NCBI RefSeq assembly: GCF_000300335.1
Contig: NZ_AMRM01000022.1
Location: 1-64,000, forward strand
Source of the DNA: Nitratireductor pacificus pht-3B
Lineage (GTDB): Bacteria; Pseudomonadota; Alphaproteobacteria; Rhizobiales; Rhizobiaceae
DNA: 64,000 nt
Reading direction: 5' to 3'
Positions 29,139 to 46,414 of this stretch are shown here, piece by piece (position 1 is the stretch's first letter; each line of letters starts with the position of its first letter). Position numbers and translations under genes: made by a program. The notes below the pieces were generated by a model. It was not told the DNA's origin and did not search any database. It saw only the letters and a list, made by a program, of their open reading frames with translations.

Positions 29139-29214
29139 GAGCGCGTAGCTCAGTTGGTAGAGCAACTGACTTTTAATCAGTAGGTCCAGGGTTCGAGCCC
29201 CTGCGCGCTCACCA
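29139..29214 (+). tRNA. tRNA-Lys (anticodon UUU)
   Basis: A complete cloverleaf is visible. The acceptor stem GAGCGCG (29139-29145) pairs with CGCGCTC (29204-29210), followed by A and an encoded CCA. The D-arm is GCTCAGTTGGTAGAGC. The anticodon stem ACTGA/TCAGT surrounds loop CTTTTAA with anticodon TTT at 29172-29174. The T-arm contains GGTTCGAGCC. Its 3' part is repeated at 46367-46414, so this gene is the likely integration site of the island that follows. Confidence 0.97.
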
Positions 29215-29228
29215 AAAAATATATAAAA

Positions 29229-29951
29229 TCAATTGTTTGTGTCGGGCAGTTTGTAGCAGAGCGATGAGTGCGGCCGCTCGGTATTGTAGTGGCGTCTCCA
29301 TGCCTCAATGATGACCTTGGCTTCGGCGAGGCTGTGGAAGATCTCGCCGTTGAGCAGTTCGTCACGAAGCTTTGAGTTGAAGCTCTCGCAGTAGCCGTTC
29401 TCCCACGGGCTGCCCGGCTCGATGAACGCGGTCTTTGCGCCGACAGCGGCGATCCACTCGCGCACCACTTTGGCGATGAACTCCGGGCCATTGTCGGAAC
29501 GAACATGGCCCGGCACACCGCGCAGGATGAACGGGGCCGACAGGACGTCGATGACGTCGGTCGAGTTGAGCCTGCGGAACTTCCTGCCATTGTGGGTCCG
29601 GCCCTCGACAAAGTCATAGGACCAGACATGGTTGGGGTGAGCAGGCCGAAGCCGGAGGCACGATCCGTCATTCAGCCAGAGCCGGTCTTTCTTCGGTTGC
29701 TTCTGGAGAACCTTCAGCCCCTCCCGCCGCCAGATGCGCTCGATACGTCTGGCGTTCACCTTCCAGCCCTCGGACCGCAGCATCGCCGTGATCCGATGAT
29801 AGCCACAGTGACCGTAACGTGCGGCGAGCCCGATGATGTCGGTGGTCAATGCCTCCTCATCCGATCGGCCATACGGCTGCTTGCGCTGGGTCGAGCGATG
29901 CTGGCCGAGAACCTTGCAGGCAAAGCGCTCCGAGATGGAGAACTTCGACAT
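29229..29951 (-). CDS. IS3-family transposase OrfB (C-terminally truncated)
   Basis: The integrase-core transposase shows the DDE residues in VWSYDFVEGR, HVRSDNGPEF and GSPWENGYCESFNSK. The frame extends upstream of the ATG at 29951 to about 29996 (KLLSPARRR), which is normally reached from OrfA by a -1 frameshift. The protein ends RPHSSLCYKLPDTNN, whereas relatives continue from HSSLGYRPPAP for some 15-25 more residues, so the end is replaced by foreign sequence. Activity is doubtful because the matching IS end is also missing. Confidence 0.85.
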   Translation of the reverse strand: MSKFSISERFACKVLGQHRSTQRKQPYGRSDEEALTTDIIGLAARYGHCGYHRITAMLRSEGWKVNARRIERIWRREGLKVLQKQPKKDRLWLNDGSCLRLRPAHPNHVWSYDFVEGRTHNGRKFRRLNSTDVIDVLSAPFILRGVPGHVRSDNGPEFIAKVVREWIAAVGAKTAFIEPGSPWENGYCESFNSKLRDELLNGEIFHSLAEAKVIIEAWRRHYNTERPHSSLCYKLPDTNN

Positions 29952-29986
29952 GACATGGTCGACACGGCGCCGACGGCGGGCGGGGC

Positions 29987-30271
29987 TCAGAAGTTTCCCG
30001 AAGCAGCCTCCTTGAGGATCAGCTTCTCAAGCGTCAGGTCCGACACCGCCTTGCGCAGCCGGTCGTCCTCTTTCTCGAGCTCCTTCAGGCGCTTCACCTG
30101 ATCGCCCTTCAGGCCACCAAACTCCCTGCGCCAGCGATAATACGTAACCTGCGTCACGCCGATCGAGCGAACCGCTTCGCCAACCGATCTTCCTCCTCCT
30201 TGCGACAACAGAACATCAACCTGGCGCAGCTTCGCGACGATCTCTTCAGGCTTGTACTTTTTCTGGGGCAC
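29987..30271 (-). CDS. IS3-family transposase OrfA
   Basis: This protein of about 94 residues has the helix-turn-helix of IS3 OrfA (KPEEIVAKLRQVDVLLSQG, then VTQVTYYRWRREFGG) and a leucine-zipper-like helix (VKRLKELEKEDDRLRKAV) used for dimerisation. It ends LILKEAASGNF, just after a GGGAAAC stretch where ribosomes can shift to the -1 frame to make OrfAB. A GTG at 30271 is taken as start; a TTG at 30295 extends it by 8 codons. Confidence 0.85.
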   Translation of the reverse strand: MPQKKYKPEEIVAKLRQVDVLLSQGGGRSVGEAVRSIGVTQVTYYRWRREFGGLKGDQVKRLKELEKEDDRLRKAVSDLTLEKLILKEAASGNF

Positions 30272-30390
30272 TCCAATGCCCTCTTCAAGGCTCAATAGCC
30301 TAATTCACGGAGGACCACTTTTCAGGGGGGAAGACTAGAAGGCGGTGTAAACTTGCGCTTCTGAGCCATTGTAGTTCGTGGATGAAGCGC

Positions 30391-30442
30391 CTCGTGCCTC
30401 GCGTTCGAACCCGGCCGCGCCCGGTTCGAATGCGGGCACGAG
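30391..30442. repeat. Long interrupted palindrome
   Basis: The left arm (30391-30411, beginning CTCGTGCC and ending TTCGAACC) pairs with the right arm (30423-30442, beginning GGTTCGAA and ending GGCACGAG). Twenty of 21 left-arm positions have a partner, with one bulged T and one mismatch among them, around an 11-base GC-only loop. It lies between the IS remnant and the end of tetR. It could terminate tetR transcription, although no T-run follows, or be a protein-binding or mobile-element site. It contains no T-loop fit good enough for a tRNA. Confidence 0.6.
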
Positions 30443-30499
30443 AGATACTGTCGCCAGAGTTCACTCCTGGTGGAGCTCTTATCCGTGCAACACTATGGC

Positions 30500-31210
30500 T
30501 CAGTATGGGTCGTCGGAATTGCTCGACCGCATGGCCGCAAGCCCTGCAAGGACGAGGTCGCGCTTCCTCTCCCACCATGGCCGCGCGCCGCCCTCGATGA
30601 CGGCAACCATGCCCTGAATCGCCGCAGCGTCTTCCGTGTGGTTTTTCGCTGCTTCTTTCCATGTCTCGATTATCGAGGCGGTGTGCGCCCTGCCCTCCCT
30701 GTCCGGCCGCGCCATGGCCCGCCAGCCGAGGAAACAGTCGCCCGCCATGTCGACCAGCGTATCGACGGCAAGCATCGATTCTTCGAGCGAAAACCCATGG
30801 TTCCGCAACCGGGCCACCGCCTCAGCGAAGGAGCGGATACCGGCCTGCGGCGCGAATTCCACGGAACGAAAAGCCTCAGCCAATCCCGGATGGCGCTCAT
30901 AAAGCGCCCAGACACCATCGGTAAGCGCGATCAGTTCCTCGCGCCAGCTGGCGCCTTCCGCGGCGCGCCAGTCCAGTTCGTCAATGGCAAGGTCGCTCGC
31001 CAGCGCGATGATCTCGCTGTGGCTTTTCACATGGCGGTAGAGCGAGGAGTGATCGACGCCGAGATGCGCTGCAAGCGAGGTCACCGTGACCCGGTCGACA
31101 CCGAGTTCCAGCGCACCCCGCGCAATGCGCTCGCGCGAAATGCGTGGAGGCCGCCCGCGCCGAGCGGCACGCTCCGGCGCGCGTTTTTCTGTCGAGGAAG
31201 AGTCAGTCAT
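30500..31210 (-). CDS. TetR family transcriptional regulator
   Basis: The 236-residue DNA-binding protein has an N-terminal HTH (RGALELGVDRVTVTSLAAHL, then GVDHSSLYRHVKSHSEIIALAS, about residues 31-72) of TetR type and a ligand domain with a TetR_C-like helix bundle (about 90-225). The first 20 residues are basic. It lies 231 bases downstream of the ABC pair on the same strand and could be read from the same transcript or from its own promoter. Its targets are not visible; repression of the adjacent uptake genes is one possibility. Confidence 0.85.
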   Translation of the reverse strand: MTDSSSTEKRAPERAARRGRPPRISRERIARGALELGVDRVTVTSLAAHLGVDHSSLYRHVKSHSEIIALASDLAIDELDWRAAEGASWREELIALTDGVWALYERHPGLAEAFRSVEFAPQAGIRSFAEAVARLRNHGFSLEESMLAVDTLVDMAGDCFLGWRAMARPDREGRAHTASIIETWKEAAKNHTEDAAAIQGMVAVIEGGARPWWERKRDLVLAGLAAMRSSNSDDPY

Positions 31211-31441
31211 GGTCGGAGCCTGTTATTGCGCTTCGATTTCTGCGTCCCTTCGCCCCTGCCTTGTCAGGCGCCTCCGGCGGAAAGAAGGATTTCCGTCGCG
31301 GACGATTTCGTCAATCGCCATTGTCGAAGGAGTGACATTGCTGGCGATGGTGACTGATCGCTCCCCTTGGGGTCGGGATCTTGAGATGTCTCTGTCTGCT
31401 AGCGCAGACCTGCCCCAAACCTCAACCGTCCGCCAACACCC

Positions 31442-33226
31442 TCATCCGAGTTTCCAACCGGCGGCGCGGGCGCGATGGCTCCAGAGCCGGGCATAGAGCC
31501 CCTTCCCGGACAGAAGCTCTTCATGCCGGCCGCGTTCCACGATGTGCCCGTCATCCAGAACGAGTATCTGGTCCGCCGCCTGGATCGTCGAAAGCTTGTG
31601 CGCCACGACAATGAGCGTGCGCCCTTCGACCAGCCGGGCAAGCGCCGTCTGGATTGCACGCTCGTTGGTCGGATCGATGGCAGCCGTCGCCTCATCCATC
31701 AAAACCACGGGTGCGTCCTTGAGGATCGCCCTGGCGATCGCCACACGCTGGCGTTCGCCGCCCGAAAGCGCTGCGCCACCCTCGCCAACCTCCGTGTCAT
31801 AGCCGTTCGGCAGGCGGGTGATGAAGTCGTGCGCCTGCGCCGCCCTCGCCGCTTCCTCGATTTCCGCCTCACTCGCTCCGGGTTTGCCCATGGCGATGTT
31901 CTCGCGGATACTGCCGGCGAAGAGATAGACCTGCTGGAACACCACCGTGACGAGATCGGACAGGCCTGCCTCGCCGATCCGTGTCACATCGGCCCCGCCG
32001 ATGGTGATCCGCCCTTCATTCGCATCCCAGAACCGCGAAATGAGACTGAGGACGGTGCTCTTGCCGGAACCGGACGGGCCAACAATGGCCGTCATCGAGC
32101 GTTCGGGAACCTCGAATGAGACATCCCGCAGCACCGGTTTTGCGGGATCATAGGAAAAATTCACCGCATCGAACCGCACCGCGTGGCCCTGCGGTTTCAG
32201 GTCGGCGGGTTCCGGCTGGTCCGGTGAGGAAAGGATGCGGTCCATCCGCACGAGGGAGGCATCGGCCATGCGCACGGTTTCCATGACGCCCAGAAGCGCC
32301 AGAAGCGGACCATACATGGAAAACAGCAGGATGAGCCCGGTGATGGCAGCGCCCTGCTCCATCAGTTGCGCCTCCGTCCGCAGGCCCGTTACCCAGATCA
32401 CCAGCGGCGCACCAAGCATGACGATCATACCAAACAGCGCCATGGGCAGGGTCAGTTGCAGCACCATCTGGATCGAGATGTCGCGGAAATCGTCGATGGC
32501 GCGACGGAAATCGTCCTGCCCTTGCGCCATGCGGTTAAAGGCGCGGATCACCGGAAGGCCCTGCACGAACTCGATCATCCGCGCGCCGGCCTCGGCCTGT
32601 TTGTCCTGCCGGCTGAGGCCGAGTTTCGAAAGCCGGCGCGACGTGCCGACGAAGACTGGAAGCGCAACGGCGATGGAAGCCGCCGTCGCAAGCGCGACGG
32701 CCCAGTCGCGCGTCAGCAAGACGATGAAAATCGCCGCCGGCAGCCCAAGCGCCTGTGCGATGCGCGGAAGACCGTCGGAAAAGAAGCTTTCGAGCATCTG
32801 CATGTCGCTGGTCAGAACGGTGACCGTATCGCCCCGATGACGGGCCTGATGGAACCCCAGAGGCAGATGCCGGAGTTTTTCCAGAATGCGCAGACGCAGA
32901 TGTCCCGCAACCTCATAGGAGGAGAGCCAGGAATTCCTGACCGACAGATATCCGAACATCAATTGCCCGGCGAGGGAAAGCGCCATGAGGCCGAAGGCCT
33001 GCGCGATCCAGATCCCCGTCAGAGCCTCTCCCTCGGCAAGCCCGATCACGACCCAGATCACCACACCGAAACTCAGGCCGAGCATCATGCTCTGCGCAAA
33101 ACGATAGGCCACGCCGCGCGCCACCCGGCCCTTGAGTGGCTCCGCCAGATGCCATGCGCGACGCAGGCTTTCGATATCCGAACGGTCTTCGTGCGTGGCT
33201 TCATCCCGTGATGCGGCAATGCTCAT
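31442..33226 (-). CDS. Siderophore-type ABC transporter, fused membrane and ATPase domains (YbtQ/IrtB-like)
   Basis: The 594-residue half-transporter has a type IV exporter fold: six transmembrane helices (about residues 40-330), then an ATPase with VGPSGSGKSTVLSLI, ALSGGERQRVAIARA, PVVLMDEATAAID and VVAHKLSTI. All motifs are intact. Its ATG at 33226 overlaps the stop of its partner (ATGA), so they form a coupled heterodimer. Pairs of this type beside a TonB-dependent receptor, an AraC regulator and an MFS protein are the yersiniabactin (YbtP-YbtQ) and mycobactin (IrtA-IrtB) importers, which work inward despite the exporter fold. The import direction here is inferred from context. A drug exporter is the alternative. 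Confidence 0.85.
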   Translation of the reverse strand: MSIAASRDEATHEDRSDIESLRRAWHLAEPLKGRVARGVAYRFAQSMMLGLSFGVVIWVVIGLAEGEALTGIWIAQAFGLMALSLAGQLMFGYLSVRNSWLSSYEVAGHLRLRILEKLRHLPLGFHQARHRGDTVTVLTSDMQMLESFFSDGLPRIAQALGLPAAIFIVLLTRDWAVALATAASIAVALPVFVGTSRRLSKLGLSRQDKQAEAGARMIEFVQGLPVIRAFNRMAQGQDDFRRAIDDFRDISIQMVLQLTLPMALFGMIVMLGAPLVIWVTGLRTEAQLMEQGAAITGLILLFSMYGPLLALLGVMETVRMADASLVRMDRILSSPDQPEPADLKPQGHAVRFDAVNFSYDPAKPVLRDVSFEVPERSMTAIVGPSGSGKSTVLSLISRFWDANEGRITIGGADVTRIGEAGLSDLVTVVFQQVYLFAGSIRENIAMGKPGASEAEIEEAARAAQAHDFITRLPNGYDTEVGEGGAALSGGERQRVAIARAILKDAPVVLMDEATAAIDPTNERAIQTALARLVEGRTLIVVAHKLSTIQAADQILVLDDGHIVERGRHEELLSGKGLYARLWSHRARAAGWKLG

Positions 33227-35046: not shown

Positions 35047-35178
35047 GTGCCTCTCTTTTCATGAAGAAAAAGGTCATGTTTGCTAGCGTGCTTCGACCCA
35101 ATTTGCAACAAGATGTTTCTTTTTTGGTGCTGCTGCTGGAGCGCCCGCGCCGGACGGCGCGGGCTGTGTTCGGCAGGA

Positions 35179-37401
35179 TCAGAATTTCACCGCCGCTCCG
35201 ATGCCGATCGTCGCGCCACGCGAGTAGCTCGCGCCGAAAACCTCGTTTCCCGTCACCAGGCTTTGGCCGTAAGGCTGGGCGGTCGTAACGTAGCGCTTGT
35301 TGAGCAGGTTCTCGCCGAAGATGTAAACCTCGCCATTGTCCCACTCCAGGGCTACCCGCGCGGAGATAAGGTGCACGGGGTCCAGCCTCGACAGGTTGCC
35401 GGCGTCCGAATAGCGCGATCCGACGAAATTGTATCCGAGCCGCGCCGAAAGTCCGAGATCGGCGGCGTTCGCGAAGCCCAGCGCATCGAGCGACGAGCGG
35501 TAGCTGAGCGATGCCCGCCCGGCCCATGTCGGCACGTACGGCAGCCGGTTTCCATCCTTCAGGCCCCGTTGCGATGCCGCGACGGCGGCCGAAACGTTGC
35601 CGATCTCCGTCGACGTATAGGTCAGGCCGGCGGCGATCGACCAGTTGTCGGTCACCTCATAGGAACCATCGACTTCCAGCCCATAGCTCCGAGTGTCGAG
35701 ATTGAGCGACATGGGCTGGAACGTGGTCGGATGGAATGCAAGGATCTGCTCCTTGCTGACGTCGTTGTAGAAGGCCGCCGCAGAGAAGTTCAGGCGGGAA
35801 TCCAGGAACGTGCCGCGTGCGCCGGCTTCGTAGGAAATGGACGACGACGATTCGTAGGGCGCCCGCGGTATGCCCTGCCAGTTCATCTGGTTGAACGTGC
35901 CATATCCGCCGCTCTTGTAGCCCCGCGCGATGGAGGCATAGGACATGAACTCGTCGGTCCAGTCATAGGAGACGGAGGCGCGGCCGGTCCAGAAATTGTA
36001 GTTTCTCCTGCCGCTCTCGTCGAACTGGTCGATGGCGAGTGGCTCCGTTCCGTCGCTTTCGTATCGGCTGGCATACTTCTTCTGCTCCCAGGTGTAGCGG
36101 CCGCCGAGCGAAGCCTTGAGCTTTTCCGTGATCGGGTAGGTCGCCTCGCCGAAGACCGCCTGTCCCGTGGTCACCTGGTTGAATGTGCTGCGTCCGGCCG
36201 CCGCTGGGCCATAGGCGAAGACCTTGATCGTCGAATCCACGTCCGCTTCGTCGCGGTAGTAGGTGGCGCCGGCGATCCACTGCACTGTCTCTCCCGGCGC
36301 CGAGTTCAGGCGGAATTCCTGGGTGAAACGGCTCTGCTCAATGTCCCAGTCGAAGAAATTGATCGCGGGGTTCCTGAAGAACTCGACGGGAACGCCCGAG
36401 ATCCTGTTGCCGAGAAACCCGTCGACGCCGTCATAGGTGAGATGCGACTGGTTCACATTGTAGGAGGTCTGCGAGGTGAAGGTGAAGCGCTCGAACTCAT
36501 GCTCGAACTTCGACTGGCTTGCATAATTCCTCACCGACTCGTCCGACAGGTTCTGCGACGCCAGGATGGGGAAGCCGTCCCCCTTGAGCATCGCGAAGGG
36601 CGGCGTGCCGCGCGCGCTTTCGGCGCTGGCACTCACGGTCCAGCTCGTCTGGTCGCTCGGCGTGAGCCGGAGCGTCAGCCGGCCGACGGCGCTGTGCTGC
36701 GCGCCGAGTTCCGGGCCGGCCGCATTGTCGATATACCCGTCTATGCCCTTCAGTCGGAACGCCACGCGCGCGCCCAACGTGTCCGCGATCAATGGCCCGC
36801 CCGCCGCGCCCTCGAGAATGCGGTGCCGCTCCGTGCCGATCTCGCCGCGCAGATATCCCTCGAACGTGTCGCCGGGCATGACCGGCACCAAATTGATCGC
36901 GCCGCCGGAGGTGTTGCGGCCGAAGAGCGTGCTCTGCGGCCCCTTGATGACCTCGACGCGCTCCAGGTCGAGATAGGCGCTATTGGACGAGGCCGCCGGC
37001 AGAGGCGTCCCATCAACGAAGGTGATGACCGAACTGTCGTCGGGGCTCAGGGGCTGGAGGATCGGCCCGATGCCGCGCATGATGACGTAGGACGTGGTAC
37101 GGTCGCCATAGCCCGGCATATAGACGCCCGGAACCTCGCGCAGCACCGCCGGCGCGTCATGAGCGCCCCGCTCGCTCAACTGCTCCCCGGTCTGTACGTC
37201 GACCGCGAGCGGAACGTCGCGCAATGCTTCGTCCCTGCGGCGCGCCGTCACGACGATCTGGTCCAGCAGCGTGCTGTCGTCGAAGCGAAGCTGCCGGTCG
37301 CCTTCCTGGGCGATGGCGGCAGGAGCGAGCAGGCTCCCCGCCAGCGCCGTCGTCGCCAACAGTGCCGATATGCCTGAAGAATGGTGCGGGCGTCGCTTCA
37401 T
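35179..37401 (-). CDS. TonB-dependent ferric-siderophore receptor (FyuA-like), locus A
   Basis: The 740-residue outer-membrane receptor has a signal peptide to about residue 31 (LAPAAIAQEG) and a TonB-box region LLDQIVVTARRR. The plug domain includes VIMRGIGPI, DGTPLP and LERVEVIKGPQSTLFGRN followed by SGGAINLVP. A 22-strand barrel ends in the outer-membrane signature GIGAAVKF with terminal Phe. Its plug resembles the FyuA-type siderophore receptors. Its ATG overlaps the MFS stop by 4 bases, and the ABC pair follows. The ligand is unknown. Confidence 0.88.
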   Translation of the reverse strand: MKRRPHHSSGISALLATTALAGSLLAPAAIAQEGDRQLRFDDSTLLDQIVVTARRRDEALRDVPLAVDVQTGEQLSERGAHDAPAVLREVPGVYMPGYGDRTTSYVIMRGIGPILQPLSPDDSSVITFVDGTPLPAASSNSAYLDLERVEVIKGPQSTLFGRNTSGGAINLVPVMPGDTFEGYLRGEIGTERHRILEGAAGGPLIADTLGARVAFRLKGIDGYIDNAAGPELGAQHSAVGRLTLRLTPSDQTSWTVSASAESARGTPPFAMLKGDGFPILASQNLSDESVRNYASQSKFEHEFERFTFTSQTSYNVNQSHLTYDGVDGFLGNRISGVPVEFFRNPAINFFDWDIEQSRFTQEFRLNSAPGETVQWIAGATYYRDEADVDSTIKVFAYGPAAAGRSTFNQVTTGQAVFGEATYPITEKLKASLGGRYTWEQKKYASRYESDGTEPLAIDQFDESGRRNYNFWTGRASVSYDWTDEFMSYASIARGYKSGGYGTFNQMNWQGIPRAPYESSSSISYEAGARGTFLDSRLNFSAAAFYNDVSKEQILAFHPTTFQPMSLNLDTRSYGLEVDGSYEVTDNWSIAAGLTYTSTEIGNVSAAVAASQRGLKDGNRLPYVPTWAGRASLSYRSSLDALGFANAADLGLSARLGYNFVGSRYSDAGNLSRLDPVHLISARVALEWDNGEVYIFGENLLNKRYVTTAQPYGQSLVTGNEVFGASYSRGATIGIGAAVKF

Positions 37402-38663
37402 GGTTGCATGACTCCGGATTTCTCATGATCTGTTGGTTCGCCGGTCCGGGAATGCACCCGCCAGGCGAAGGCACCGCTTGCGGCACAGAGGACGGCGGTG
37501 ATCGCAAGCACGAGGCTTGCCCCGCCGGCGGAAAGCAGCCCGCCGGCGCCGATGGCGAAGAATGTCGCGATCAGGGCATCGATGCTGGCGAAGGCCGAAG
37601 CCTGGACCGTGCTTCCCCGCCCCGAGCAGATGGGCAGGACGAGCGCGCGAAAGATGACGAAGAACATGTAGCTGAGGCCCATGGTAACGAGCGAGATCAG
37701 CACGATCCCGCCCGCCGAGCCGGCAATGTCCGAGAAGGCGAAAGCGCCCATCGCAACGGCCGCGAGCACCGCAGAGGCGCTCGCCACCTGCCAGGCGCCG
37801 AGCCGGGCCAGCGCCAGGCCGACGAACACCGAGGCAGCGATTCCGGTACCGTTCGAACCGATCGCGGCGAGCATGCCGATCTGGCCGAGGCTGAGACCCG
37901 CATCCACTTGGAGGACGGGAAGCATCCCGCCTGCCAGTCCCAGTCCCGCCCGCACGAGGAGCGAAAGGAGGAGGATCCGTCTTGCCGGCGCGCTCGTAAG
38001 AAAGCTCCACAGGCCGGAAAGCCTCGTTTCGGCCCGCTCGAACCGTCCGTGCTCCGTGCCGCCGGAGGGCAGCAACAGGGCCGGAAGGGTGAGCAGTGAT
38101 GTCATGGCGATCAGGAGCACCACGATGGCGCGCCAGCCGAGATCGCCTCCGATCATGACGGTAAGGCCAAGCACCAATCCGCCGAGGGCCAGCCCAACGC
38201 CCTGGAAGGGCGCGCTGCGCCGGCGTTCCTCCGGCGTGAAACCGCTCAGCAGATAGCCGTCCAGCGCCACCGCCGCCGTCGAGACGCAGCCGATGACGAG
38301 TGTCGCAAGCGCGGTTATCACGAGTGGCGCGCTGGCCGGGTCGAATGCGTTCAGGGCGGCGGTCAGGAGGATCGCTCCGACGAGGCTGCAGAGCGCCACC
38401 CTGCGGAAGACGCGCATGTCGCCGCGCCCCAAACGCGCAACCGCGGGCGCCCATGCGACCCGGAGCGCGAAAGGTAGATAGGCGAGAAAAACGAGGTTGG
38501 CGATTTCGGGAGGATGCCCGGCCTGGCGCAAAGCGGCGGGCAGAATGTTGTAGATAAAGAACAGAGGCACGGCCGCCGCCGCGTAGACCGCGCCGACGCC
38601 AATGCAGAACGTCAGAGGCAGTGAACCGTGCTCACGGCGAGCTGCACTTGATCCGGAGATCAT
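37398..38663 (-). CDS. MFS transporter, AmpG/RhtX/YbtX-like, locus A
   Basis: The 421-residue protein has 12 predicted transmembrane helices. Its first loop region PLFFIYNILPAALRQAGHP and FLAYLPFALRVAWAPAVARL follow the pattern of the RhtX/FptX/AmpG group, in which a short helix 1, LPxxLRxxG and WAP motifs are shared. YbtX in the yersiniabactin cluster is of this kind. The ATG at 38663 is chosen; the open frame upstream is not conserved in look. The stop is coupled to the receptor start (ATGA). It probably moves a siderophore, or assists uptake, across the inner membrane. Confidence 0.82.
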   Translation of the reverse strand: MISGSSAARREHGSLPLTFCIGVGAVYAAAAVPLFFIYNILPAALRQAGHPPEIANLVFLAYLPFALRVAWAPAVARLGRGDMRVFRRVALCSLVGAILLTAALNAFDPASAPLVITALATLVIGCVSTAAVALDGYLLSGFTPEERRRSAPFQGVGLALGGLVLGLTVMIGGDLGWRAIVVLLIAMTSLLTLPALLLPSGGTEHGRFERAETRLSGLWSFLTSAPARRILLLSLLVRAGLGLAGGMLPVLQVDAGLSLGQIGMLAAIGSNGTGIAASVFVGLALARLGAWQVASASAVLAAVAMGAFAFSDIAGSAGGIVLISLVTMGLSYMFFVIFRALVLPICSGRGSTVQASAFASIDALIATFFAIGAGGLLSAGGASLVLAITAVLCAASGAFAWRVHSRTGEPTDHEKSGVMQP

Positions 38664-38805
38664 CGGCACCGGCCATAGGCGGTCGTGAGAAGGCCGCTTC
38701 TCAGTTGCTTTGCCAGCCGTGCTCGACGACGACAGGCCGTTCTTCGCCCGTCGCCTCGGACATGCTCTGCCCCGAACATTTTGGAATGGAACACCGTGAA
38801 CCTTC

Positions 38806-38824
38806 AATCTTCAAACTGAAGATT
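38806..38824. promoter_or_regulatory. Perfect inverted repeat upstream of locus A
   Basis: AATCTTCA and TGAAGATT form 8-bp arms around a 3-base centre, about 145 bases upstream of the MFS start and 75 bases after the AraC stop. It lies in the only non-coding stretch before the locus A operon (38664-38898), so it may be a regulator site. AraC proteins usually bind direct repeats, so another regulator is possible. Confidence 0.4.
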
Positions 38825-38898: not shown

Positions 38899-39891
38899 TT
38901 ACTTGGAATCGTTAAAATCCTGTGAGGGAGAGCAGCCAAATCGCCGACGATATGCAGTTGCGAAATTGGCGGGGTTGTTGAAACCGATCCTGTAGGCGAT
39001 TTCCGAAACGCTCATGTTTCGTTCCCGCAGGAGCGCCCGCGCGACTTCCAGCCGGCGTTCACGCAGATACTCCATGATCGTCATGCCATAAAGCGCCTTG
39101 AAACTACGCCTCAGACCCGTCTCGTTCATCCCCACTATTCTGGCTATTTCCGGGACGGAAGGCGGATTCGCCAACCCCTCGTTCAACAGGGCGGTCGCAT
39201 GTTCGACGCGCTCTCTATGAGTGCGGGTAAGACTGGGAAATGGGCTGCGTTCCTGACGGGATATGGATGCAATTTCCACGAGCGCCGCAAGAGCATGACT
39301 TTCTGCGTAAAGGCGACCGAGAATCCCGTTATAGGGGTTATCCGCCATTTGCATGAGATGCGCTCTCAACATCGGTCGATCGTCAAGCTCCTGCCAGATG
39401 AAACCGGTTCGAAACGCCTCGACGATCCTGTCGTAGCCTGGCAGTTTCGCTTCCTCGGCGAGTTGCGCAATGAGGTCTGCGCCCACGTGAAATCCCGTCA
39501 TTTTGCAAACCTGACCCGCGCTCTGGATGGAGCTGGCTTCGATCTGATCGCCGGCAGCAAAGAACGTCGGCACGCCGATACGGTTTGCCACAACCCGCTT
39601 TCCATCGACGAACCCCGTGTGCTCGCCCTCCAGAAGGAGCCCGACGAAGAGATTTGGACTGTGGGACGAGATGACCTTCTCACTGTCAAGATACTCAAGA
39701 GCGCATCCTGTGAGGTCCAGTGATGGTCGCAGCGGCTCAATCCAGTAGCTGCCACGCGCATAAAGTGACGCACTCGCTGTCACACGCGTCGAGACTGGTT
39801 CGACTACCCTGGAGGTTTCGAAATGATGTGCGAGATCGTCATAGGAGATGCTTCCTGCAACGCGACGCTCAGAATGAATATTCTTGTACAC
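38899..39891 (-). CDS. AraC family regulator (PchR/YbtA-like), locus A
   Basis: The 330-residue regulator has a C-terminal double helix-turn-helix of AraC type (about residues 230-325). Its first HTH is PSVPEIARIVGMNETGLRRS, its second MSVSEIAYRIGFNNPANFAT, followed by YRRRFGCSPS. The N-terminal domain is not the sugar-binding cupin but resembles PchR-type sensors, which bind ferric siderophore and activate receptor and uptake genes. It lies directly upstream of the MFS-receptor-ABC genes on the same strand, the expected place for their activator. Confidence 0.85.
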   Translation of the reverse strand: MYKNIHSERRVAGSISYDDLAHHFETSRVVEPVSTRVTASASLYARGSYWIEPLRPSLDLTGCALEYLDSEKVISSHSPNLFVGLLLEGEHTGFVDGKRVVANRIGVPTFFAAGDQIEASSIQSAGQVCKMTGFHVGADLIAQLAEEAKLPGYDRIVEAFRTGFIWQELDDRPMLRAHLMQMADNPYNGILGRLYAESHALAALVEIASISRQERSPFPSLTRTHRERVEHATALLNEGLANPPSVPEIARIVGMNETGLRRSFKALYGMTIMEYLRERRLEVARALLRERNMSVSEIAYRIGFNNPANFATAYRRRFGCSPSQDFNDSK

Positions 39892-40441: not shown

Positions 40442-41413
40442 GTGCCGGCAGAACCGCATCGATACTCCTTGAACGACCTTATGGGCAACGCCCTGCGTTT
40501 CTCGACGCGGCTCAAGGCGTGCGCCAACGAAACCGCGCGCCAAACGCCGGCGAGCGACGCGCTCTTCGAGGGCCGTTTGCTTGGCGCCGAGGTCAGTCCG
40601 GGTCTCTATGCCACCGGCTACGACCTCACCTATCTGCAGGACCGGGCGGTCGAGTTCGAGGTGGGCGTCTCCCTGACCTGCGGCCTGCTGCTCGAGGGGG
40701 CCGCCAACCCCATGCGGGTCCCGGGGCACGACCCGGTCACACAGATACAGCATCAGCCGGTTTTGTTCGGCTTCGGCACGACGGGGGAATGCTCCGTGAA
40801 ATGGCGTTGCGGCCAGCGCTGCGCCATGGGTGGATTTTCGCTGCGGCCGACCTTCTTCGAGCGTTTCGGCGAGACCGTCGCCGAGGACGGGCTCGCCGCA
40901 CTGCAGGGCTTTTTCCGCTCGGACTTTCGCACGGACCGGCTGCGACCCTCACCGCAATTGAGCCGGATGGCCGCCGCCAGCATCAACAACGCCTTCGTGA
41001 ACGAGATGGAAGCGCTTTTTCTCGAAAGCAGCACGCTGGCGATGGTGGTGGAAGTGGGGGCACTCATCGACGGCCGGCAGCGCGCGCAGACCATACCGGC
41101 ACGCCACCGCCGCATTCTGATGCTGGCGTGCGAGAAACTCGACGCGGATCTCGTTTGCCTGCCGACGACGGTGGAACTGGCGCGTGAGGTGGGCACGAAC
41201 GTCACCACGCTCCAGCGCCTGTTCAGACAGTCCCTCGGAACGACCATTCTGGGCTATGTGCAGCGTCGGCGGCTCGAGGTTGCCCGCATGATGCTCCAGG
41301 AGCGGACAGGCTCCGTCGGCGAGATCGGGCATTCCGTCGGCTATGCCAGCGCCTCCGCCTTCTCGGCCGCATACAGAAGGCATTTCGGCCATTCCCCCAC
41401 TTCAGAGGGGTAG
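40442..41413 (+). CDS. AraC family regulator, locus B
   Basis: The 323-residue regulator has a C-terminal AraC HTH pair (about residues 235-318): TTVELAREVGTNVTTLQRLF and GSVGEIGHSVGYASASAFSA, then YRRHFGHSP. The N-terminal domain is PchR-like. The GTG at 40442 with GGGAAG upstream is taken as start; an ATG at 40481 would shorten it by 13 residues. It reads toward the receptor gene that begins about 140 bases on. Sensing of the cognate ferric siderophore and activation of locus B is the likely role. Confidence 0.82.
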   Translation: MPAEPHRYSLNDLMGNALRFSTRLKACANETARQTPASDALFEGRLLGAEVSPGLYATGYDLTYLQDRAVEFEVGVSLTCGLLLEGAANPMRVPGHDPVTQIQHQPVLFGFGTTGECSVKWRCGQRCAMGGFSLRPTFFERFGETVAEDGLAALQGFFRSDFRTDRLRPSPQLSRMAAASINNAFVNEMEALFLESSTLAMVVEVGALIDGRQRAQTIPARHRRILMLACEKLDADLVCLPTTVELAREVGTNVTTLQRLFRQSLGTTILGYVQRRRLEVARMMLQERTGSVGEIGHSVGYASASAFSAAYRRHFGHSPTSEG

Positions 41414-41554
41414 GGATCGGATGCAGGCACCGCCAATCGTTGCGTTTCGCGACAATCGGATTTCGTCTGGCGACAGTTGCCCGCGAGACACCTGGCGACA
41501 CGCGCTGTAAAAGCTGATGCACTCACTCATGTTAGGCGTTGGCGGGGCAGTTCC

Positions 41555-43747
41555 TTGACTTCCATTTCCTCTTCCATCCTGAAGCGCGGCGTGTCGTTCC
41601 TGGCGCTGCTCCTTTCGGTCTCCACCGGACCGGCTCTTGCCCAGGAAACACGAACCGACGAACGGGAACAACCCGTGGTGGGCGAGGCCGGAAGCACATT
41701 GCTCGACGCGATCACCATCACCGCGCGCAAGCGCCTCGAGCTCGACCTCGACGTTCCCGTAAGCACCAGCGTGCTTCCAGGCGAGAACCTGCCGGCGACC
41801 ACGCTCGATCCGGGTGGCGACATTTCCCGCCAGTCGCCGAACCTCAATTATGCAGACTTCGCCCGGCCCAGCGACCGCTACGGAACGCTGCGCGGCGTCG
41901 GCCCGCTCGGATCGCCGCTCAACTCTCTCGACAGCACGGTCGGCTTCGCCATCGACGGCGTGCCGACCAGCGCCTTCGGCTATGGCCAGCCGCTGTTCGA
42001 CATCGATCGCGTCGAGGTGCTGCGCGGACCGCAGGGAACCCTGTTCGGCCGCAACGCGCTCGGCGGTCTCATCAATGTCGTGCCGCGCGAAGCCGACGGG
42101 GAGCGCGAGTTCCGCATCGACACGCAGATCGGCTCCGACGGTTTCGGCCAGGCCGAGGCCGTCGCGGGGGGCTGGCTCATTCCGGACTCCGTCGCCGGGC
42201 GCGGCGCGCTCTTCTATCAGACCTTCGCTGGCGATGTGCCCAACGGCATCATCGGCGGCGAGGAAGGCGGCGTCGATCTCAAGGCTGGGCGCGGCTCGCT
42301 GCGCTTCACGCCGGATGCCACCCTGACGATCGACGTGACGGGAAGCTATTCCAGCGACGACCGCAACAAGGTGATCTGGCTCCTGAAGGAGCATCCCGAC
42401 TTTCCGGTCAGCGGCAGCGACGTAAGACCGGTCAACGACCGCGACATCGCCCAGGGCACGGTGAAGGTGACGAAGGATTTCGATACGCTGTCGCTGACAT
42501 CCGTCACCTCCTATCAGGACATCCGCATCCGCTCCTCCGACGAGTTCACGGACAGCTACATCTTCGGCCGGCTGCTGGGCGTCGATCCGGGCTTCTTCAT
42601 CGACCCGAACGACGATGTCGGGTCGGTCAGGGAACGGGAGAAGATCTTCAGCCAGGAGTTCAGGCTGAATTCGGCGGAAGGCAGCGACTGGGACTGGGTT
42701 GCGGGCGTCAGCTATCTCAGGTCCGATTTCAACACCTACCGCGTGATGAACAGCAGCATGTGGCCGACCAGCAACGGCACCACCGACAACGACGTGAACA
42801 GCCAGACCTTCGCCGTCTTCGGCGATGTGACCGTGCCGCTCGGAAACCGTTTCGAGATCTCGGGCGGGCTGCGCCTCGCCCATGACAGGCAGGACTTCAC
42901 CGGACGTTTCGTCTCGAATGGAACACCGGGCATCGAGCCCTCCTTCCATCAGGAAAACAGCTTCTCGGACACCTATCTCACCGGCCGCGCCGCGCTGTCC
43001 TATGCGTGGACGGACGGCATCAAGTCCTATGTCTCGGTCGCGCGGGGATATTCTTCCGGCGGCTTCGAGCGCACGGCGCAGAACTCCGCCTACGGCACGC
43101 CGGCGGAACCGTTCCGTCCTGCCACGGGCTGGACATACGAGATCGGGACGAAGGCGCAGCTGACCGACGCGATCAGCCTCAGCGGCGCCGTGTTCTACAA
43201 CGATGTGACGGACGGACAGCTCACCGGTTTCGATAACGCGACCGCGCAGGTCTTCTTCGCCAACCAGGACTACCGGAGCTACGGGTTCGAACTGCAGGCA
43301 AGTGCCGAGCTCGGCCATGGTTTCGAGCTCAGCGCGGGCGTGGGCTACACGAGAAGCCGTCTCGAAGGCCAGCCGACGCCCAATCTGCCGATTCCCGTCG
43401 AAGGCAACCAGGTGCCGCATGCTCCGCAATGGACCGCCAATCTCGGGCTAGGCTATCGCAAGGCGGGCGAGGACATCGGCCTGAGCGGCGATTTCTATGC
43501 CAACGCCAGCTATCAGTATGTCGGCGAGCGGTATCCGGACGTCCAGAACTCCCTGCGGATGGACGCCTATCACATCGTCAACGCGAAGATCGGCTGGGAG
43601 AACGACCGGGTGAGCGTCAACGCCTTCGTCAACAACCTCCTCGATGAACGGCCCGTCTACTACGCGACCGCATACTCGCCGGACGTGACGGCGGTCATCG
43701 CGGGGCGCGGACGGGTGTTCGGCGTCGGCGCCAGCCTGAAATGGTGA
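41555..43747 (+). CDS. TonB-dependent ferric-siderophore receptor, locus B
   Basis: This outer-membrane receptor of about 730 residues has a signal peptide ending GPALAQE, TonB-box region LLDAITITARKR and plug motifs TLRGVGPL, FAIDGVP and DRVEVLRGPQGTLFGRN. A full barrel follows, closing with VFGVGASLKW (terminal Trp). The start is uncertain: no ATG fits the signal peptide, and a TTG at 41555 just before the Thr-Ser-rich leader is chosen, with an upstream TTG at 41477 possible. It resembles the locus A receptor in plug layout but not closely in the barrel. Its stop overlaps the MFS start by 7 bases. Confidence 0.87.
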   Translation: MTSISSSILKRGVSFLALLLSVSTGPALAQETRTDEREQPVVGEAGSTLLDAITITARKRLELDLDVPVSTSVLPGENLPATTLDPGGDISRQSPNLNYADFARPSDRYGTLRGVGPLGSPLNSLDSTVGFAIDGVPTSAFGYGQPLFDIDRVEVLRGPQGTLFGRNALGGLINVVPREADGEREFRIDTQIGSDGFGQAEAVAGGWLIPDSVAGRGALFYQTFAGDVPNGIIGGEEGGVDLKAGRGSLRFTPDATLTIDVTGSYSSDDRNKVIWLLKEHPDFPVSGSDVRPVNDRDIAQGTVKVTKDFDTLSLTSVTSYQDIRIRSSDEFTDSYIFGRLLGVDPGFFIDPNDDVGSVREREKIFSQEFRLNSAEGSDWDWVAGVSYLRSDFNTYRVMNSSMWPTSNGTTDNDVNSQTFAVFGDVTVPLGNRFEISGGLRLAHDRQDFTGRFVSNGTPGIEPSFHQENSFSDTYLTGRAALSYAWTDGIKSYVSVARGYSSGGFERTAQNSAYGTPAEPFRPATGWTYEIGTKAQLTDAISLSGAVFYNDVTDGQLTGFDNATAQVFFANQDYRSYGFELQASAELGHGFELSAGVGYTRSRLEGQPTPNLPIPVEGNQVPHAPQWTANLGLGYRKAGEDIGLSGDFYANASYQYVGERYPDVQNSLRMDAYHIVNAKIGWENDRVSVNAFVNNLLDERPVYYATAYSPDVTAVIAGRGRVFGVGASLKW

Positions 43748-44958
43748 CGGGCGCCCGCCTCGTTTCCGTCTTCTGCATCAACATGGTGCAGGGGCTGCCG
43801 GCCAGCTTCTTCGCCATCGGATTGCCCGCCCTGCTTCGCGAGGCGGGTGCCGGCCTGGACATGGTGGCGCTTGCCTATCTGGTGTGGGCGCCATGGGCGC
43901 TGAAATGGTTGTGGGGTCCGTATCTGGATGGCGGCCCCTCCTTCTTCAACGCCGTGTTCGGCCGCATCGCCCATCTGCCCTTCATCATGGCCGGCGTCTT
44001 CGCGCTGCTTGCCCTCTTCCCGCCATCGGCCTCCGTCGGGCCCGTTCTCGCCATCGGCGTCGTCTGCTCCTTCGTGGGGGCGACGCTCCAGATGGTGCTC
44101 GCGCGATGGATCATGGCGGTGGAGGCGGACGACCGGCGGCGCGCGCGGCTCAATGCGGCGCAGGTCGGGGGCATGATTACGGGAGCCATGACCGGCGGGA
44201 CGCTGATCGTGGCGCTTTCCGACCTCCTGTCTTGGACCGTGGCCATAGCGGCGATCGTCGCCCTGATCGCTGCCGCGAGCCTGCCGTTCCTGCTGACCCA
44301 GCGGGAGGCGGCATCGCCTCGCATTCCGCTCGAAGGGGAAGAACGGCGAAGCGCTGCCGGAATCGCCGGGGCGCTCAGGCAGTTCTTCACCCGCCCTGGC
44401 GTCGGCCTGCTGGCGGGCCTGATGCTGATGTCGGACGTGGCGACGGGCGTCGACGTGCTGCTTGCAGCGCACCTTGTCGACAATGGCTACAGCGCCGCCC
44501 GAGCGACATTTCTGCTCAACACGCTCGCGCTGGCAATCACCGTGGCCGCAACCTTTGTCACCGCTCGCTATCTGGAACGATTTCCGGTTCATCGGGTGCT
44601 CTGCGCTCTGCTTTTCATGAAGGCGTCAATTTTCCTGCTGTTTGGAAGTGGCTTGGTTTCCAGCGCTTACGCGTCTGCGGCCCTTGCGATTGCGGCCGTC
44701 GTCCTGGCCTCGGTCATCGCCATTGCCTATTGGCAAATCTACATGCGCTTTGCGGCACCGGAGCAGGCCGCTTCCGATATCGGCATCATGACGTCGTTGC
44801 GCACACTGTTCCTCATGGCCGGCGGCATCGGTGCGGGGCAGGTAGCCGGCACGATCGGTTATGACGGCATTTTCTGGTTGGCGGCCATCATGGCTTTCGC
44901 CGCTTCGCTGTTGGCGATCATCCAGGCGCGCCAAGCCCACGGGGCGGCTGCACCATGA
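43741..44958 (+). CDS. RhtX/FptX-like MFS siderophore permease, locus B
   Basis: The 405-residue permease has 12 transmembrane helices. INMVQGLPASFFAIGLPALL near the N-terminus and LVWAPWALKWLWGPYLD are the marks of the RhtX/FptX family, single-protein inner-membrane importers for rhizobactin 1021 and pyochelin. The ATG lies inside the last codons of the receptor gene (ATGGTGA overlap), and the stop overlaps the esterase start (ATGA). This gives locus B its own inner-membrane step without an ABC transporter. Confidence 0.88.
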   Translation: MVTGARLVSVFCINMVQGLPASFFAIGLPALLREAGAGLDMVALAYLVWAPWALKWLWGPYLDGGPSFFNAVFGRIAHLPFIMAGVFALLALFPPSASVGPVLAIGVVCSFVGATLQMVLARWIMAVEADDRRRARLNAAQVGGMITGAMTGGTLIVALSDLLSWTVAIAAIVALIAAASLPFLLTQREAASPRIPLEGEERRSAAGIAGALRQFFTRPGVGLLAGLMLMSDVATGVDVLLAAHLVDNGYSAARATFLLNTLALAITVAATFVTARYLERFPVHRVLCALLFMKASIFLLFGSGLVSSAYASAALAIAAVVLASVIAIAYWQIYMRFAAPEQAASDIGIMTSLRTLFLMAGGIGAGQVAGTIGYDGIFWLAAIMAFAASLLAIIQARQAHGAAAP

Positions 44959-45875
44959 TCACCAGAATGCTGAAGCTGACCGCTCAACAACACATGCAGT
45001 CATTCGGCCGATGGAGGGTTTCACGCCGCGCGGAAAATGCCCGCGAGCCCATGCTGCGCGACGTGAAGCGCGGATACGCCCTGCCGGAAACGCACGAGTT
45101 CACCACGACGGGACCGGGCGGCGACCACCGGATCTTCGTGGCGGTGCCGCCGGGAAATCCGCCGGTATCGGGCTATCCGGTGCTGTTCGTGACGGATGCC
45201 AATGCGGTGTTCGGAGTGGCGGTCGATGCGGCGCGTCTCCAGATGCCGTGGCCGGAGGTGAGCGCGGTTACCCCTTTCATGATCGTGGGCATCGGCTATC
45301 CCGGCCGTCTGCCCTTCGATCATCGCAGGCGCTCCTGGGATCTGGCGCCGCGCCTGCGCAATCCGAGCTGGCGTTCTCCGCTGGGTCTCCCCTGGCATCG
45401 TCCGGGCGGCGCTGACGCCTTCGTGGATTTCCTGACCGGTCCCCTCATCGAGGCGTTGGGAAAGCGCTATCCGGTGGACGGAACGGCGTGCGGCATCTGC
45501 GGTCTGTCGCTGGGCGGCACGTTCGCGCTTTACGCCTATGCCACGCGACCCGACATGTTCATATTCCACGCCGCCATCAGCCCGGCCCTTTGGTTCGACG
45601 ATGGCAGGGTTATCGACGAACTGAAACGGCTGTCAGCGCAATCCCGGCCGAAAACGAGGGTTTTCATCGGTGTCGGCGGTGAGGAAATACCCGGAGAACC
45701 GGGTGTCTGCGAAATGATGTTGGACATGTCGCATGAGGCTGCACGCGAGATTGAGCGGATCGGCTCAAGAACGCTTCTCGTGGAGTATGATGGCGAGAAC
45801 CATCAGTCGACGATCATCGCCGCAATGCCGCGCGTCATGCGGGAAGCAGCAGCCGGATTGCGCTGCGTGGGATGA
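44955..45875 (+). CDS. Alpha/beta-hydrolase, siderophore esterase type, locus B
   Basis: The 306-residue hydrolase belongs to the esterase D-like group that contains IroE and BesA-type siderophore esterases. The nucleophile elbow is GLSLGGTFALYAYA (Gly-Leu-Ser-Leu-Gly-Gly, Ser nucleophile) and the catalytic His is in YDGENHQST. AISPALWFDDGRV is typical of the group. It has no signal peptide, so it acts in the cytoplasm. As the last coupled gene of receptor-permease-esterase it probably opens an ester-type siderophore after import to release iron. The exact substrate is unknown. Confidence 0.82.
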   Translation: MITRMLKLTAQQHMQSFGRWRVSRRAENAREPMLRDVKRGYALPETHEFTTTGPGGDHRIFVAVPPGNPPVSGYPVLFVTDANAVFGVAVDAARLQMPWPEVSAVTPFMIVGIGYPGRLPFDHRRRSWDLAPRLRNPSWRSPLGLPWHRPGGADAFVDFLTGPLIEALGKRYPVDGTACGICGLSLGGTFALYAYATRPDMFIFHAAISPALWFDDGRVIDELKRLSAQSRPKTRVFIGVGGEEIPGEPGVCEMMLDMSHEAAREIERIGSRTLLVEYDGENHQSTIIAAMPRVMREAAAGLRCVG

Positions 45876-46366
45876 AACAGCCACTGTGACCGCCGTCATG
45901 ATCGCCGTGTAAACCACGTGGGATGCCGCTCGGGCTATGGAACAGCGGCGCGCGCATGATGCCATCGTAATGAGCCCGGAACTCGCACCGCAATATGTCG
46001 TTCACAACCCCGGTAACTTGACAGTGGCTCCAAGTAAAAAAGCCATGCTGAGGAAGTCGAATGCCCAGCGCACCTGAAAACATGAGTTGTTCTCGCCGTG
46101 CATGCTTGACATGCACCATATTGCCGATGATGTTGACGACGAAATGGCTCCCGAAGGCTCATCGCCGATGGGATTAAAAGGGAACACGGTGCGGCCTAGC
46201 TGTATGGCGCCTATCCCGTGACTGCCCCCGCAAACTGTGAACGGCAAGCGGCCTGCATATGCCACTGGATCAACAGAATCCGGGAAGGCGCAGTACCGCG
46301 GCGAGCCGTGAGCAGGAGACCTGCCATTGTTTTCGAAACGCAACCCGGGCGGGGTGCCCCGGAAGG
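45876..46366. other. Right-border segment of the island, no assignable gene
   Basis: These 491 bases between the esterase and the tRNA-like repeat contain no convincing gene. A plus-strand frame at 45937-46077 (46 codons) and several open minus-strand frames exist, but none looks like a known family. The stretch may be debris of an excision or integration module. No integrase motif is seen. Confidence 0.4.
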
Positions 46367-46414
46367 TGACCTTTAATCTGTAGGTCCAGGGTTCGAGCCC
46401 CTGTGCGCTCACCA
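46367..46414 (+). repeat. tRNA-Lys 3' fragment, att-like direct repeat
   Basis: The 48 nt copy 29167-29214 of tRNA-Lys with three mismatches, including the T-arm, the acceptor 3' strand and CCA. The 5' half of the tRNA is absent, so it is not a functional tRNA gene. It marks the far end of the island, 17,200 bp from the original. Confidence 0.85.

What the first reader, a model, noticed from the sequence alone, without database searches (positions are those of the whole stretch)
29167..46414. 17.2-kb tRNA-Lys island that carries only siderophore acquisition
A 48-nt part of tRNA-Lys recurs with three mismatches exactly 17,200 bp away. The DNA between the copies holds an IS remnant and two complete ferric-siderophore uptake loci, but no siderophore biosynthesis gene. 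Housekeeping genes flank both sides. This suggests horizontal acquisition of a xenosiderophore ('cheater') module. The parallel with the yersiniabactin high-pathogenicity island, also in a tRNA gene but with biosynthesis genes, is notable. The repeats are seen directly; the ecological role is inferred.
Basis: partly seen in the sequence, partly recalled or inferred. Interest (0 to 1): 0.78.

Follow-up and report, generated by a model that had tools for sequence, protein, structure and literature searches.

The report
tRNA-Lys island of siderophore uptake genes
A 17-kb piece of foreign DNA sits in a lysine tRNA gene of a bacterium of the Rhizobiaceae and carries two sets of genes for taking up iron-carrying molecules but none for making them, so the cell probably uses iron carriers released by its neighbours.

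Summary
An intact tRNA-Lys(UUU) (29139-29214) and a 48-nt copy of its 3' part (46367-46414, 3 mismatches, spacing 17,200) bracket 17 kb with two siderophore-uptake loci, a damaged IS3-type element and an orphan cobalamin riboswitch. Congener G004 has the empty site: ccdA, one intact tRNA-Lys and the BASS gene adjacent. None of nine congeners has the island there. In G009 a 38-kb prophage with an integrase sits in the same tRNA and leaves a 47-nt duplicate, so this tRNA is a real attachment site. Island genes are rare in the family and differ in GC3 and codon usage. Both receptors match FyuA best among solved structures; the ABC pair matches YbtPQ/IrtA best among bacterial ones. An orthologous Shinella plasmid locus lies beside NRPS/PKS and isochorismate-synthase genes. 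Searches of this genome found no NIS synthetase, isochorismate synthase or Cy-type NRPS. It looks like an uptake-only, horizontally acquired module for yersiniabactin/pyochelin-like siderophores whose integrase is lost. New detail: its ABC pair is 76-79% identical to that of Rhodovulum plasmids, but the receptors are only 23-26% identical, so pump and receptor were shuffled. The ecological role is not shown. New member of a known kind.

The parts
29139..29214 (+). tRNA-Lys(UUU), intact; left attachment end, 3' half presumably rebuilt by the incoming element
   Evidence: ARAGORN; RF00005; 76/76 identical to the empty-site tRNA of G004
29229..30295 (-). IS3-type insertion element, OrfB 29229-29951 and OrfA 29987-30295; internally shortened remnant; OrfB ends 14 nt from the tRNA, where an integrase gene is usually found (recalled)
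   Evidence: Pfam rve/rve_3/HTH_21 and HTH_Tnp_1; relatives match from 29245 to about 30338 with 50-52 bp more in between
30500..31210 (-). TetR-like regulator
   Evidence: no Pfam match at 1e-5; weak NCBIfam TetR match below cut-off; 42% identical to the TetR between ABC pair and AraC on Shinella plasmid pbSHIWSC3
31442..33289 (-). exporter-fold ABC half-transporter (YbtPQ/IrtAB-like importer subunit)
   Evidence: Pfam ABC_membrane + ABC_tran; best bacterial match among the 60 PDB rows shown is 6p6i/8vsi chain A, 3.3e-90; 79% identical to R. sulfidophilum plasmid protein
33223..35046 (-). second exporter-fold ABC half-transporter
   Evidence: IrtA 6.5e-103 and 6p6i/8vsi chain A 4.8e-102 the best bacterial matches among the 60 PDB rows shown; 76% identical to R. 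sulfidophilum plasmid protein
35179..37401 (-). TonB-dependent siderophore receptor 1
   Evidence: Pfam Plug + barrel; pesticin receptor (FyuA) 4epa best PDB match 4.8e-37
37398..38807 (-). MFS transporter, distant RhtX/FptX-like
   Evidence: Pfam MFS_1 below cut-off; TIGR02718 5.4e-15, below cut-off
38899..39891 (-). AraC-type regulator of locus 1
   Evidence: Pfam HTH_18
40442..41413 (+). AraC-type regulator of locus 2
   Evidence: Pfam HTH_18; relatives 40-46% identical beside the related receptor in three loci, L038, L058, L069
41477..43747 (+). TonB-dependent siderophore receptor 2
   Evidence: Pfam; pesticin receptor (FyuA) 4epa best PDB match 7.8e-35
43741..44958 (+). MFS transporter, RhtX/FptX-like
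   Evidence: Pfam MFS_1; TIGR02718 3.7e-22, below cut-off
44955..45875 (+). siderophore esterase-like hydrolase
   Evidence: Pfam PF00756; PDB matches BES, ferric enterobactin esterase, TAFC esterase, IroE
46128..46342 (+). orphan cobalamin riboswitch, no gene downstream
   Evidence: RF00174 105.8 bits; related riboswitches on plasmids precede metal-transport operons
46367..46414 (+). 3' tRNA-Lys fragment, 45/48 identical; right attachment end
   Evidence: flank continues as in the G004 empty site
28126..28884 (-). left flank: CcdA/DsbD-TM protein, present in 10 of 10 genus genomes
46427..47311 (-). right flank: SBF/BASS symporter; directly after the tRNA in G004; found in 2 of 10 genus genomes

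Best explanation
A genomic island entered tRNA-Lys(UUU) by site-specific recombination between its own copy of the tRNA 3' end and the host gene. The host tRNA was rebuilt on the left and its displaced 3' part left on the right (shown by anatomy and empty site; the recombinase is inferred, since it is gone, perhaps displaced by the IS3-type element). The cargo is two receptor-to-cytoplasm uptake routes. Locus 1: AraC - MFS - TonB receptor - paired exporter-fold ABC importer (+ TetR). Locus 2: AraC - TonB receptor - MFS - esterase. Most likely each AraC protein senses the incoming ferric siderophore and switches on its receptor; the receptor brings the complex in; the ABC pair or MFS moves it or its iron across the inner membrane; in locus 2 the esterase opens the ligand to release iron (all inferred from families). 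The cell lacks recognisable genes to make a matching siderophore, so it uses those of neighbours, most likely yersiniabactin/pyochelin/agrochelin-type phenolate-thiazolines for locus 1 and an ester-containing one for locus 2 (inferred).
For: Empty site in G004. Prophage with a PHROG integrase match (phrog_1, 2.8e-25; no Pfam match) in the same tRNA of G009, with a 47-nt duplicate. 0 of 9 congeners have the island at the site. ABC subunit in 3 of 199 family genomes (E <= 1e-120) and 1 of 385 class genomes (E <= 1e-150), own genome counted; receptor 2 in 7 of 199 (E <= 1e-80); receptor 1 in 1 of 385 (E <= 1e-120). GC3 0.77 against 0.84 in flanks, p about 3e-4. The pesticin receptor (FyuA) is the top solved relative of both receptors, and of the Shinella and Rhodovulum receptors, but ranks 29th of 34 for an unrelated control receptor. 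ABC pair: IrtA and 6p6i/8vsi (YbtPQ) best bacterial matches in the rows shown. Orthologous ABC-ABC-TetR next to NRPS/PKS with Cy motifs, isochorismate synthase and AMP-binding protein in Shinella. No NIS, isochorismate or Cy genes found in the own genome.
Against: No integrase or mobility gene in the island. Eukaryotic ABCB exporters outscore YbtP/IrtA in the PDB search, so direction of transport is not given by sequence. Both MFS proteins score far below the RhtX/FptX cut-off. The codon difference is modest per gene. The class-wide searches scored only the best 2 or 3 candidates of each genome. The genome is a draft of 51 contigs. Hydroxamate-only and opine-type metallophore pathways were not searched.
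Confidence: 0.8

Rival explanations
1. The ABC pair is an exporter (drug or peptide efflux) and only the TonB/MFS parts import siderophores.
For: Exporter fold; eukaryotic ABCB pumps are the top PDB hits. YbtPQ itself has been reported to affect drug susceptibility (PMC7876324, passages seen).
Against: Best bacterial solved matches in the rows shown are the importers IrtA and YbtPQ. The pair stands next to a TonB receptor and an AraC-like regulator in 6 of 6 compared loci of the close group (window included), and next to a recognised MFS protein in 5 of 6; in Neorhizobium that place holds an unnamed 393-aa protein.
Confidence: 0.1
2. The strain makes the ligand itself through the PKS/NRPS cluster on contig C13, so the island is a self-uptake system.
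For: G000 C13 has a 2842-aa PKS/aminotransferase/NRPS and a 940-aa NRPS with one condensation domain each.
Against: A similar pair of condensation-domain frames is found in 9 of 10 genus genomes while the island is at this site in none of the nine others; no Cy motif in 2 of 2 domains; no receptor or iron gene among the eight frames of that stretch scanned; neighbours are a GH16 glycosidase and a DegT aminotransferase.
Confidence: 0.06
3. The island is decaying and non-functional: the integrase is lost, the IS is damaged, the riboswitch has no gene.
For: No integrase; IS shortened; orphan riboswitch; displaced tRNA copy has 3 changes.
Against: All ten transport, regulatory and esterase genes are uninterrupted frames, the ABC and receptor ones with lengths like their relatives', and gene order matches relatives.
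Confidence: 0.1
4. The tRNA repeat is not an integration scar but a duplication made by other recombination.
For: No recombinase left in the island other than the IS3 transposase.
Against: The boundaries nearly coincide with a prophage's repeat in the same tRNA of G009 (tRNA positions 30-76 against 29-76), and with the empty site in G004.
Confidence: 0.04

Closest known systems
Yersinia/E. coli high-pathogenicity island (yersiniabactin; fyuA, ybtA, ybtPQ, ybtX, irp genes)
   Same: Element in a tRNA gene; FyuA-like receptor, AraC regulator, paired exporter-fold ABC importer, MFS protein (HPI content recalled; FyuA/YbtPQ similarity)
   Different: tRNA-Lys, not tRNA-Asn (recalled); no biosynthesis genes; no integrase; a second receptor/MFS/esterase locus; unrelated host group
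Pseudomonas aeruginosa pyochelin uptake (PchR, FptA, FptX, PchHI)
   Same: AraC + receptor + MFS + heterodimeric ABC pair acting in parallel at the inner membrane (PMC10846271, passages seen)
   Different: No biosynthesis genes alongside; receptors score higher with FyuA than with the pyochelin receptors; MFS only distantly FptX-like
Shinella sp. WSC3-e plasmid pbSHIWSC3 siderophore-type cluster
   Same: ABC-ABC-TetR-AraC-TonB-MFS, ABC 57-58% and TetR 42% identical
   Different: Carries NRPS/PKS, isochorismate synthase and other biosynthesis genes
Rhodovulum sulfidophilum plasmid locus (AP014802)
   Same: AraC-MFS-TonB-ABC-ABC, no biosynthesis gene in the 30 kb shown; ABC pair 76% and 79% identical
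   Different: Receptor only 23-26% identical, MFS 27%, AraC 37% over 131 residues; on a plasmid, not in a tRNA
Receptor-only 'cheating' strategy in pseudomonads (pyoverdine non-producers)
   Same: Uptake genes without synthesis (PMC11734721, passages seen)
   Different: Different siderophore chemistry and host; here whole uptake routes, not only receptors, are on one tRNA-borne island

Membership tests
tRNA-borne genomic island | intact tRNA at one end and direct repeat of its 3' part at the other | tested here: met
tRNA-borne genomic island | empty site in a close relative | tested here: met
   G004
tRNA-borne genomic island | sporadic distribution of the cargo | tested here: met
   ABC 3 of 199 family and 1 of 385 class genomes; receptor 2 in 7 of 199; receptor 1 in 1 of 385; in the class searches only 2-3 candidates a genome were scored
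tRNA-borne genomic island | deviating composition | tested here: met
   GC3 and codon score, 34 flank against 11 island genes (IS OrfB included), p 3e-4 and 2e-4
tRNA-borne genomic island | integrase gene | tested here: not met
   no recombinase domain in the island other than the IS3 transposase; G009 prophage integrase has no significant tblastn match in it (best E 0.14). Degenerate islands often lack it (recalled), so this lowers 'mobile island', not 'island'
High-pathogenicity island (yersiniabactin) | siderophore biosynthesis genes of irp1/irp2 type on the island | tested here: not met
   called genes over 100 aa annotated, none biosynthetic
High-pathogenicity island (yersiniabactin) | tRNA-Asn insertion with P4-type integrase (feature recalled) | tested here: not met
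   tRNA-Lys, no integrase
YbtPQ/IrtAB-type siderophore ABC importer | two adjacent exporter-fold half-transporters with siderophore receptor | tested here: met
YbtPQ/IrtAB-type siderophore ABC importer | ferric-siderophore import activity | not testable with these tools
   needs uptake assay
FyuA-type receptor | closest solved relative is FyuA (4epa), by a margin | tested here: met
   130.9 against 59.0 bits, and 123.7 against 56.6 bits; control receptor of G007 finds the enantio-pyochelin receptor first and 4epa 29th of 34
RhtX/FptX MFS siderophore transporter (TIGR02718) | score above the curated cut-off of 356.15 bits | tested here: not met
   78.8 and 55.2 bits
Siderophore esterase (IroE/Fes/TAFC-type) | PF00756 and match to solved siderophore esterases | tested here: met

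The most novel reading that the evidence does not exclude
Uptake-only siderophore islands form a class of modular mobile 'receiver' elements in Alphaproteobacteria: a conserved inner-membrane ABC pair travels between orders on plasmids and tRNA islands and is re-equipped with unrelated outer-membrane receptors, so that one pump is matched to whichever neighbour's siderophore is at hand.
Probability: 0.25. Interest if true: 0.6.

Novelty: new member of a known kind. Interest (0 to 1): 0.42.

Why it matters
It is a clean natural case, with an empty site and a second element in the same tRNA, of a bacterium gaining siderophore use without recognisable siderophore production. Orthologues of its pump sit beside a biosynthesis cluster in Shinella, which gives a testable source of the ligand. 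The pump/receptor mismatch with Rhodovulum points to receptor exchange as a way in which ligand range changes.

Tried and rejected
The genome-contig scan with a two-row receptor alignment gave one locus only, so the species of the window could not be named. The own-genome PF00425 hit of 273.7 bits looked like an isochorismate synthase; it is PabB, and the other is TrpE. The idea that the C13 PKS/NRPS makes the ligand was weakened by the spread of similar frames in the genus and the lack of Cy motifs. Folding of the riboswitch-tRNA junction gave nothing beyond shuffles (z 0.43). Terminal inverted repeats of the IS could not be fixed. Literature: eight of ten searches used; no title or abstract start listed there describes an uptake-only siderophore island in tRNA-Lys of Rhizobiaceae; that is a statement about those eight listings only. 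Three papers were seen in passages, none in full. Structure prediction was not used.

Caveats on counts: the 199 genomes include G000 and, as listed, two other genus members (G002, G005); absence of the island genes elsewhere in the other seven congeners was not tested, only their tRNA-Lys/ccdA region was read. In some searches only the best 3 and 2 first-look candidates per genome were scored, so a relative could be missed. PDB lists were cut at 60 of 147 and 60 of 175 rows. That 6p6i is YbtPQ and 4epa FyuA is recalled; the listing names 8vsi chain B as YbtQ and 4epa as pesticin receptor. In one search four Shinella proteins and two own proteins were examined; the Cy-type motif was found in 3 of 4 and 0 of 2, the ordinary C motif in 0 of 4 and 1 of 2; one of the four Shinella proteins (42405-45707) was not Pfam-scanned and its stretch 1-500 was taken by guess. 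Motif definitions are recalled. In the receptor tree the Rhodovulum row is a long branch, flagged as unsure. Gene calls in scripts come from a simple GC3-based caller.


Full report
What is there. The window is the first 64 kb of contig C22 (76.7 kb) of an unnamed 4.47-Mb genome in 51 contigs, 99.98% complete. tRNA-Lys(UUU) lies at 29139-29214. Its 3' 48 nt recur at 46367-46414 with three mismatches, 17,200 bp away; a shuffled-sequence control never gives such a match. Of the three best other genome matches to this tRNA that were typed, one is tRNA-Lys(CTT), the others Thr and Trp; so the UUU gene is probably single and had to be kept intact by the insertion (inference).

Cargo. From left to right: an IS3-type element whose OrfB ends 14 nt after the tRNA, 50-52 bp shorter than three relatives over the matched span; a TetR-like regulator; two exporter-fold ABC half-transporters; TonB receptor 1; an MFS protein; an AraC regulator; then, divergently, a second AraC regulator, TonB receptor 2, an MFS protein and an esterase. 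At the right end is a complete cobalamin riboswitch with no gene behind it. No integrase and no biosynthesis gene was found; two called frames under 100 aa were not scanned.

Empty and occupied sites. In G004, of the same genus, ccdA, one tRNA-Lys and the BASS gene are contiguous (346 bp between the two protein matches) and similarity continues on both sides up to the tRNA ends. Among the nine congeners, G001, G003, G005 and G006 have tRNA-Lys between ccdA and the FGGY kinase, in the opposite orientation and with no other called gene but small overlapping frames; G002 has the same order with about 1.1 kb more; G007 has the tRNA as in the window, followed on its 3' side by five other frames, among them an unrelated TonB receptor; G008 is rearranged and has tRNA-Ser next to ccdA; G009 has a 38-kb prophage. 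None (0 of 9) has the island at this site. The G009 prophage follows an intact tRNA-Lys, has near it a protein that matches the PHROG integrase family (2.8e-25; no Pfam match), has capsid, head-tail and tail proteins, and ends with a 47-nt exact copy of tRNA positions 30-76. This shows that the tRNA is a working attachment site in the genus; its repeat begins one base from where the island's repeat begins.

Foreign origin. Island genes have lower GC3 (0.77 against 0.84) and lower codon agreement with the genome (34 flank and 11 island genes; p 3e-4 and 2e-4), and GC 62.7% against 65.4% and 64.8%. The ABC subunit is found in 3 of 199 family genomes and 1 of 385 class genomes, receptor 2 in 7 of 199, receptor 1 in 1 of 385, own genome counted, at strict thresholds. 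On plasmids the nearest ABC pairs are those of Rhodovulum sulfidophilum, another order, at 76% and 79% identity.

Which siderophores. Locus 1 has the same order AraC-MFS-TonB-ABC-ABC in G164 and in Rhodovulum. Both receptors find 4epa, the pesticin/yersiniabactin receptor FyuA, first among solved structures, far ahead of the next; so do the Shinella and Rhodovulum receptors, but not a control TonB receptor from G007, which finds the enantio-pyochelin receptor first and 4epa 29th of 34. The ABC subunits find IrtA and YbtPQ chains first among the bacterial entries shown, though eukaryotic ABCB pumps score higher. The orthologous Shinella plasmid locus, with a related TetR (42%), stands next to NRPS/PKS genes with heterocyclisation-type motifs in 3 of 4 proteins, an isochorismate synthase (TIGR00543 above cut-off) and an AMP-binding protein. 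This points to phenolate-thiazoline siderophores for locus 1 (inference). Locus 2 carries an esterase whose solved relatives include enterobactin- and triacetylfusarinine-type esterases, and its AraC-TonB-esterase-MFS set recurs in a Pararhizobium MAG.

No maker found in the genome. PF04183: none in G000, though 3 of 10 genus genomes have it. PF00425: two, PabB and TrpE. PF00668: two domains, both in a PKS/NRPS cluster on C13; a similar pair of frames occurs in 9 of 10 genus genomes. It has an ordinary C motif in one domain and no Cy motif in either. A further uptake locus (ABC-ABC-TonB-FecCD, 35-39% identical to the island's) lies on C13. Hydroxamate-only or opine-type routes were not searched.

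Receptor and pump shuffled. In trees of nine ABC rows the window pair groups with Rhodovulum (97/99 for one subunit, 86/86 for the other), while in a tree of sixteen receptors receptor 1 groups with Bartonella and G164 (100/100) and the Rhodovulum receptor, a long branch, is only 23-26% identical to the window's two. Either lineage may have swapped its receptor.

Judgement. The finding is real and its main reading stands: a tRNA-Lys island with uptake routes only. The parts are known kinds (tRNA islands, FyuA/YbtPQ-like uptake, receptor-only strategies; PMC10846271, PMC7876324 and PMC11734721 seen in passages). What is fresh is the combination, the empty-site and second-element evidence, and the pump/receptor mismatch. 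How it acts in nature is not shown.

Noticed in passing
window 46128-46342: Complete cobalamin riboswitch with no gene downstream, 24 nt before the tRNA fragment. Similar ones on plasmids lie 8-90 nt (Labrenzia: 472 nt) before annotated metal-transport operons; in R. sulfidophilum a related one lies about 1.5 kb from the siderophore locus, before a BLUF-domain gene.
   Followed up: partly
L130-L132 (G009 C3 about 0.7-39.2 kb): 38-kb prophage with capsid and head-tail connector proteins inserted in the same tRNA-Lys of a congener, with a 47-nt exact repeat.
   Followed up: partly
L121:1797-6885 (G007): An unrelated TonB receptor (best solved match the enantio-pyochelin receptor) and four small frames lie at the 3' side of the same tRNA-Lys, without a tRNA repeat.
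   Followed up: partly
L010, L012, L014, L015, L017, L018 against window 29068-29214: The tRNA-Lys is inverted relative to ccdA in six congeners (G001, G002, G003, G005, G006, G009); G000, G004 and G007 have it divergent from ccdA; G008 has none there.
   Followed up: no
L054:4371-15718 (G000 C13): PKS/aminotransferase/NRPS cluster, with similar condensation-domain frame pairs in 9 of 10 genus genomes, next to a GH16 glycosidase, a phosphopantetheinyl transferase and a DegT aminotransferase; product unknown.
   Followed up: partly
L068/L070 (Shinella plasmid pbSHIWSC3 7.9-48 kb): Large siderophore-type NRPS/PKS cluster with isochorismate synthase, an annotated SidA/IucD/PvdA-type monooxygenase and heterocyclisation motifs; product not identified here.
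   Followed up: partly
L066 (Bartonella sp. HY328 plasmid): Locus with two TonB receptors, two AraC regulators, two MFS proteins and the ABC pair, without an annotated biosynthesis gene in the 22 kb shown.
   Followed up: no
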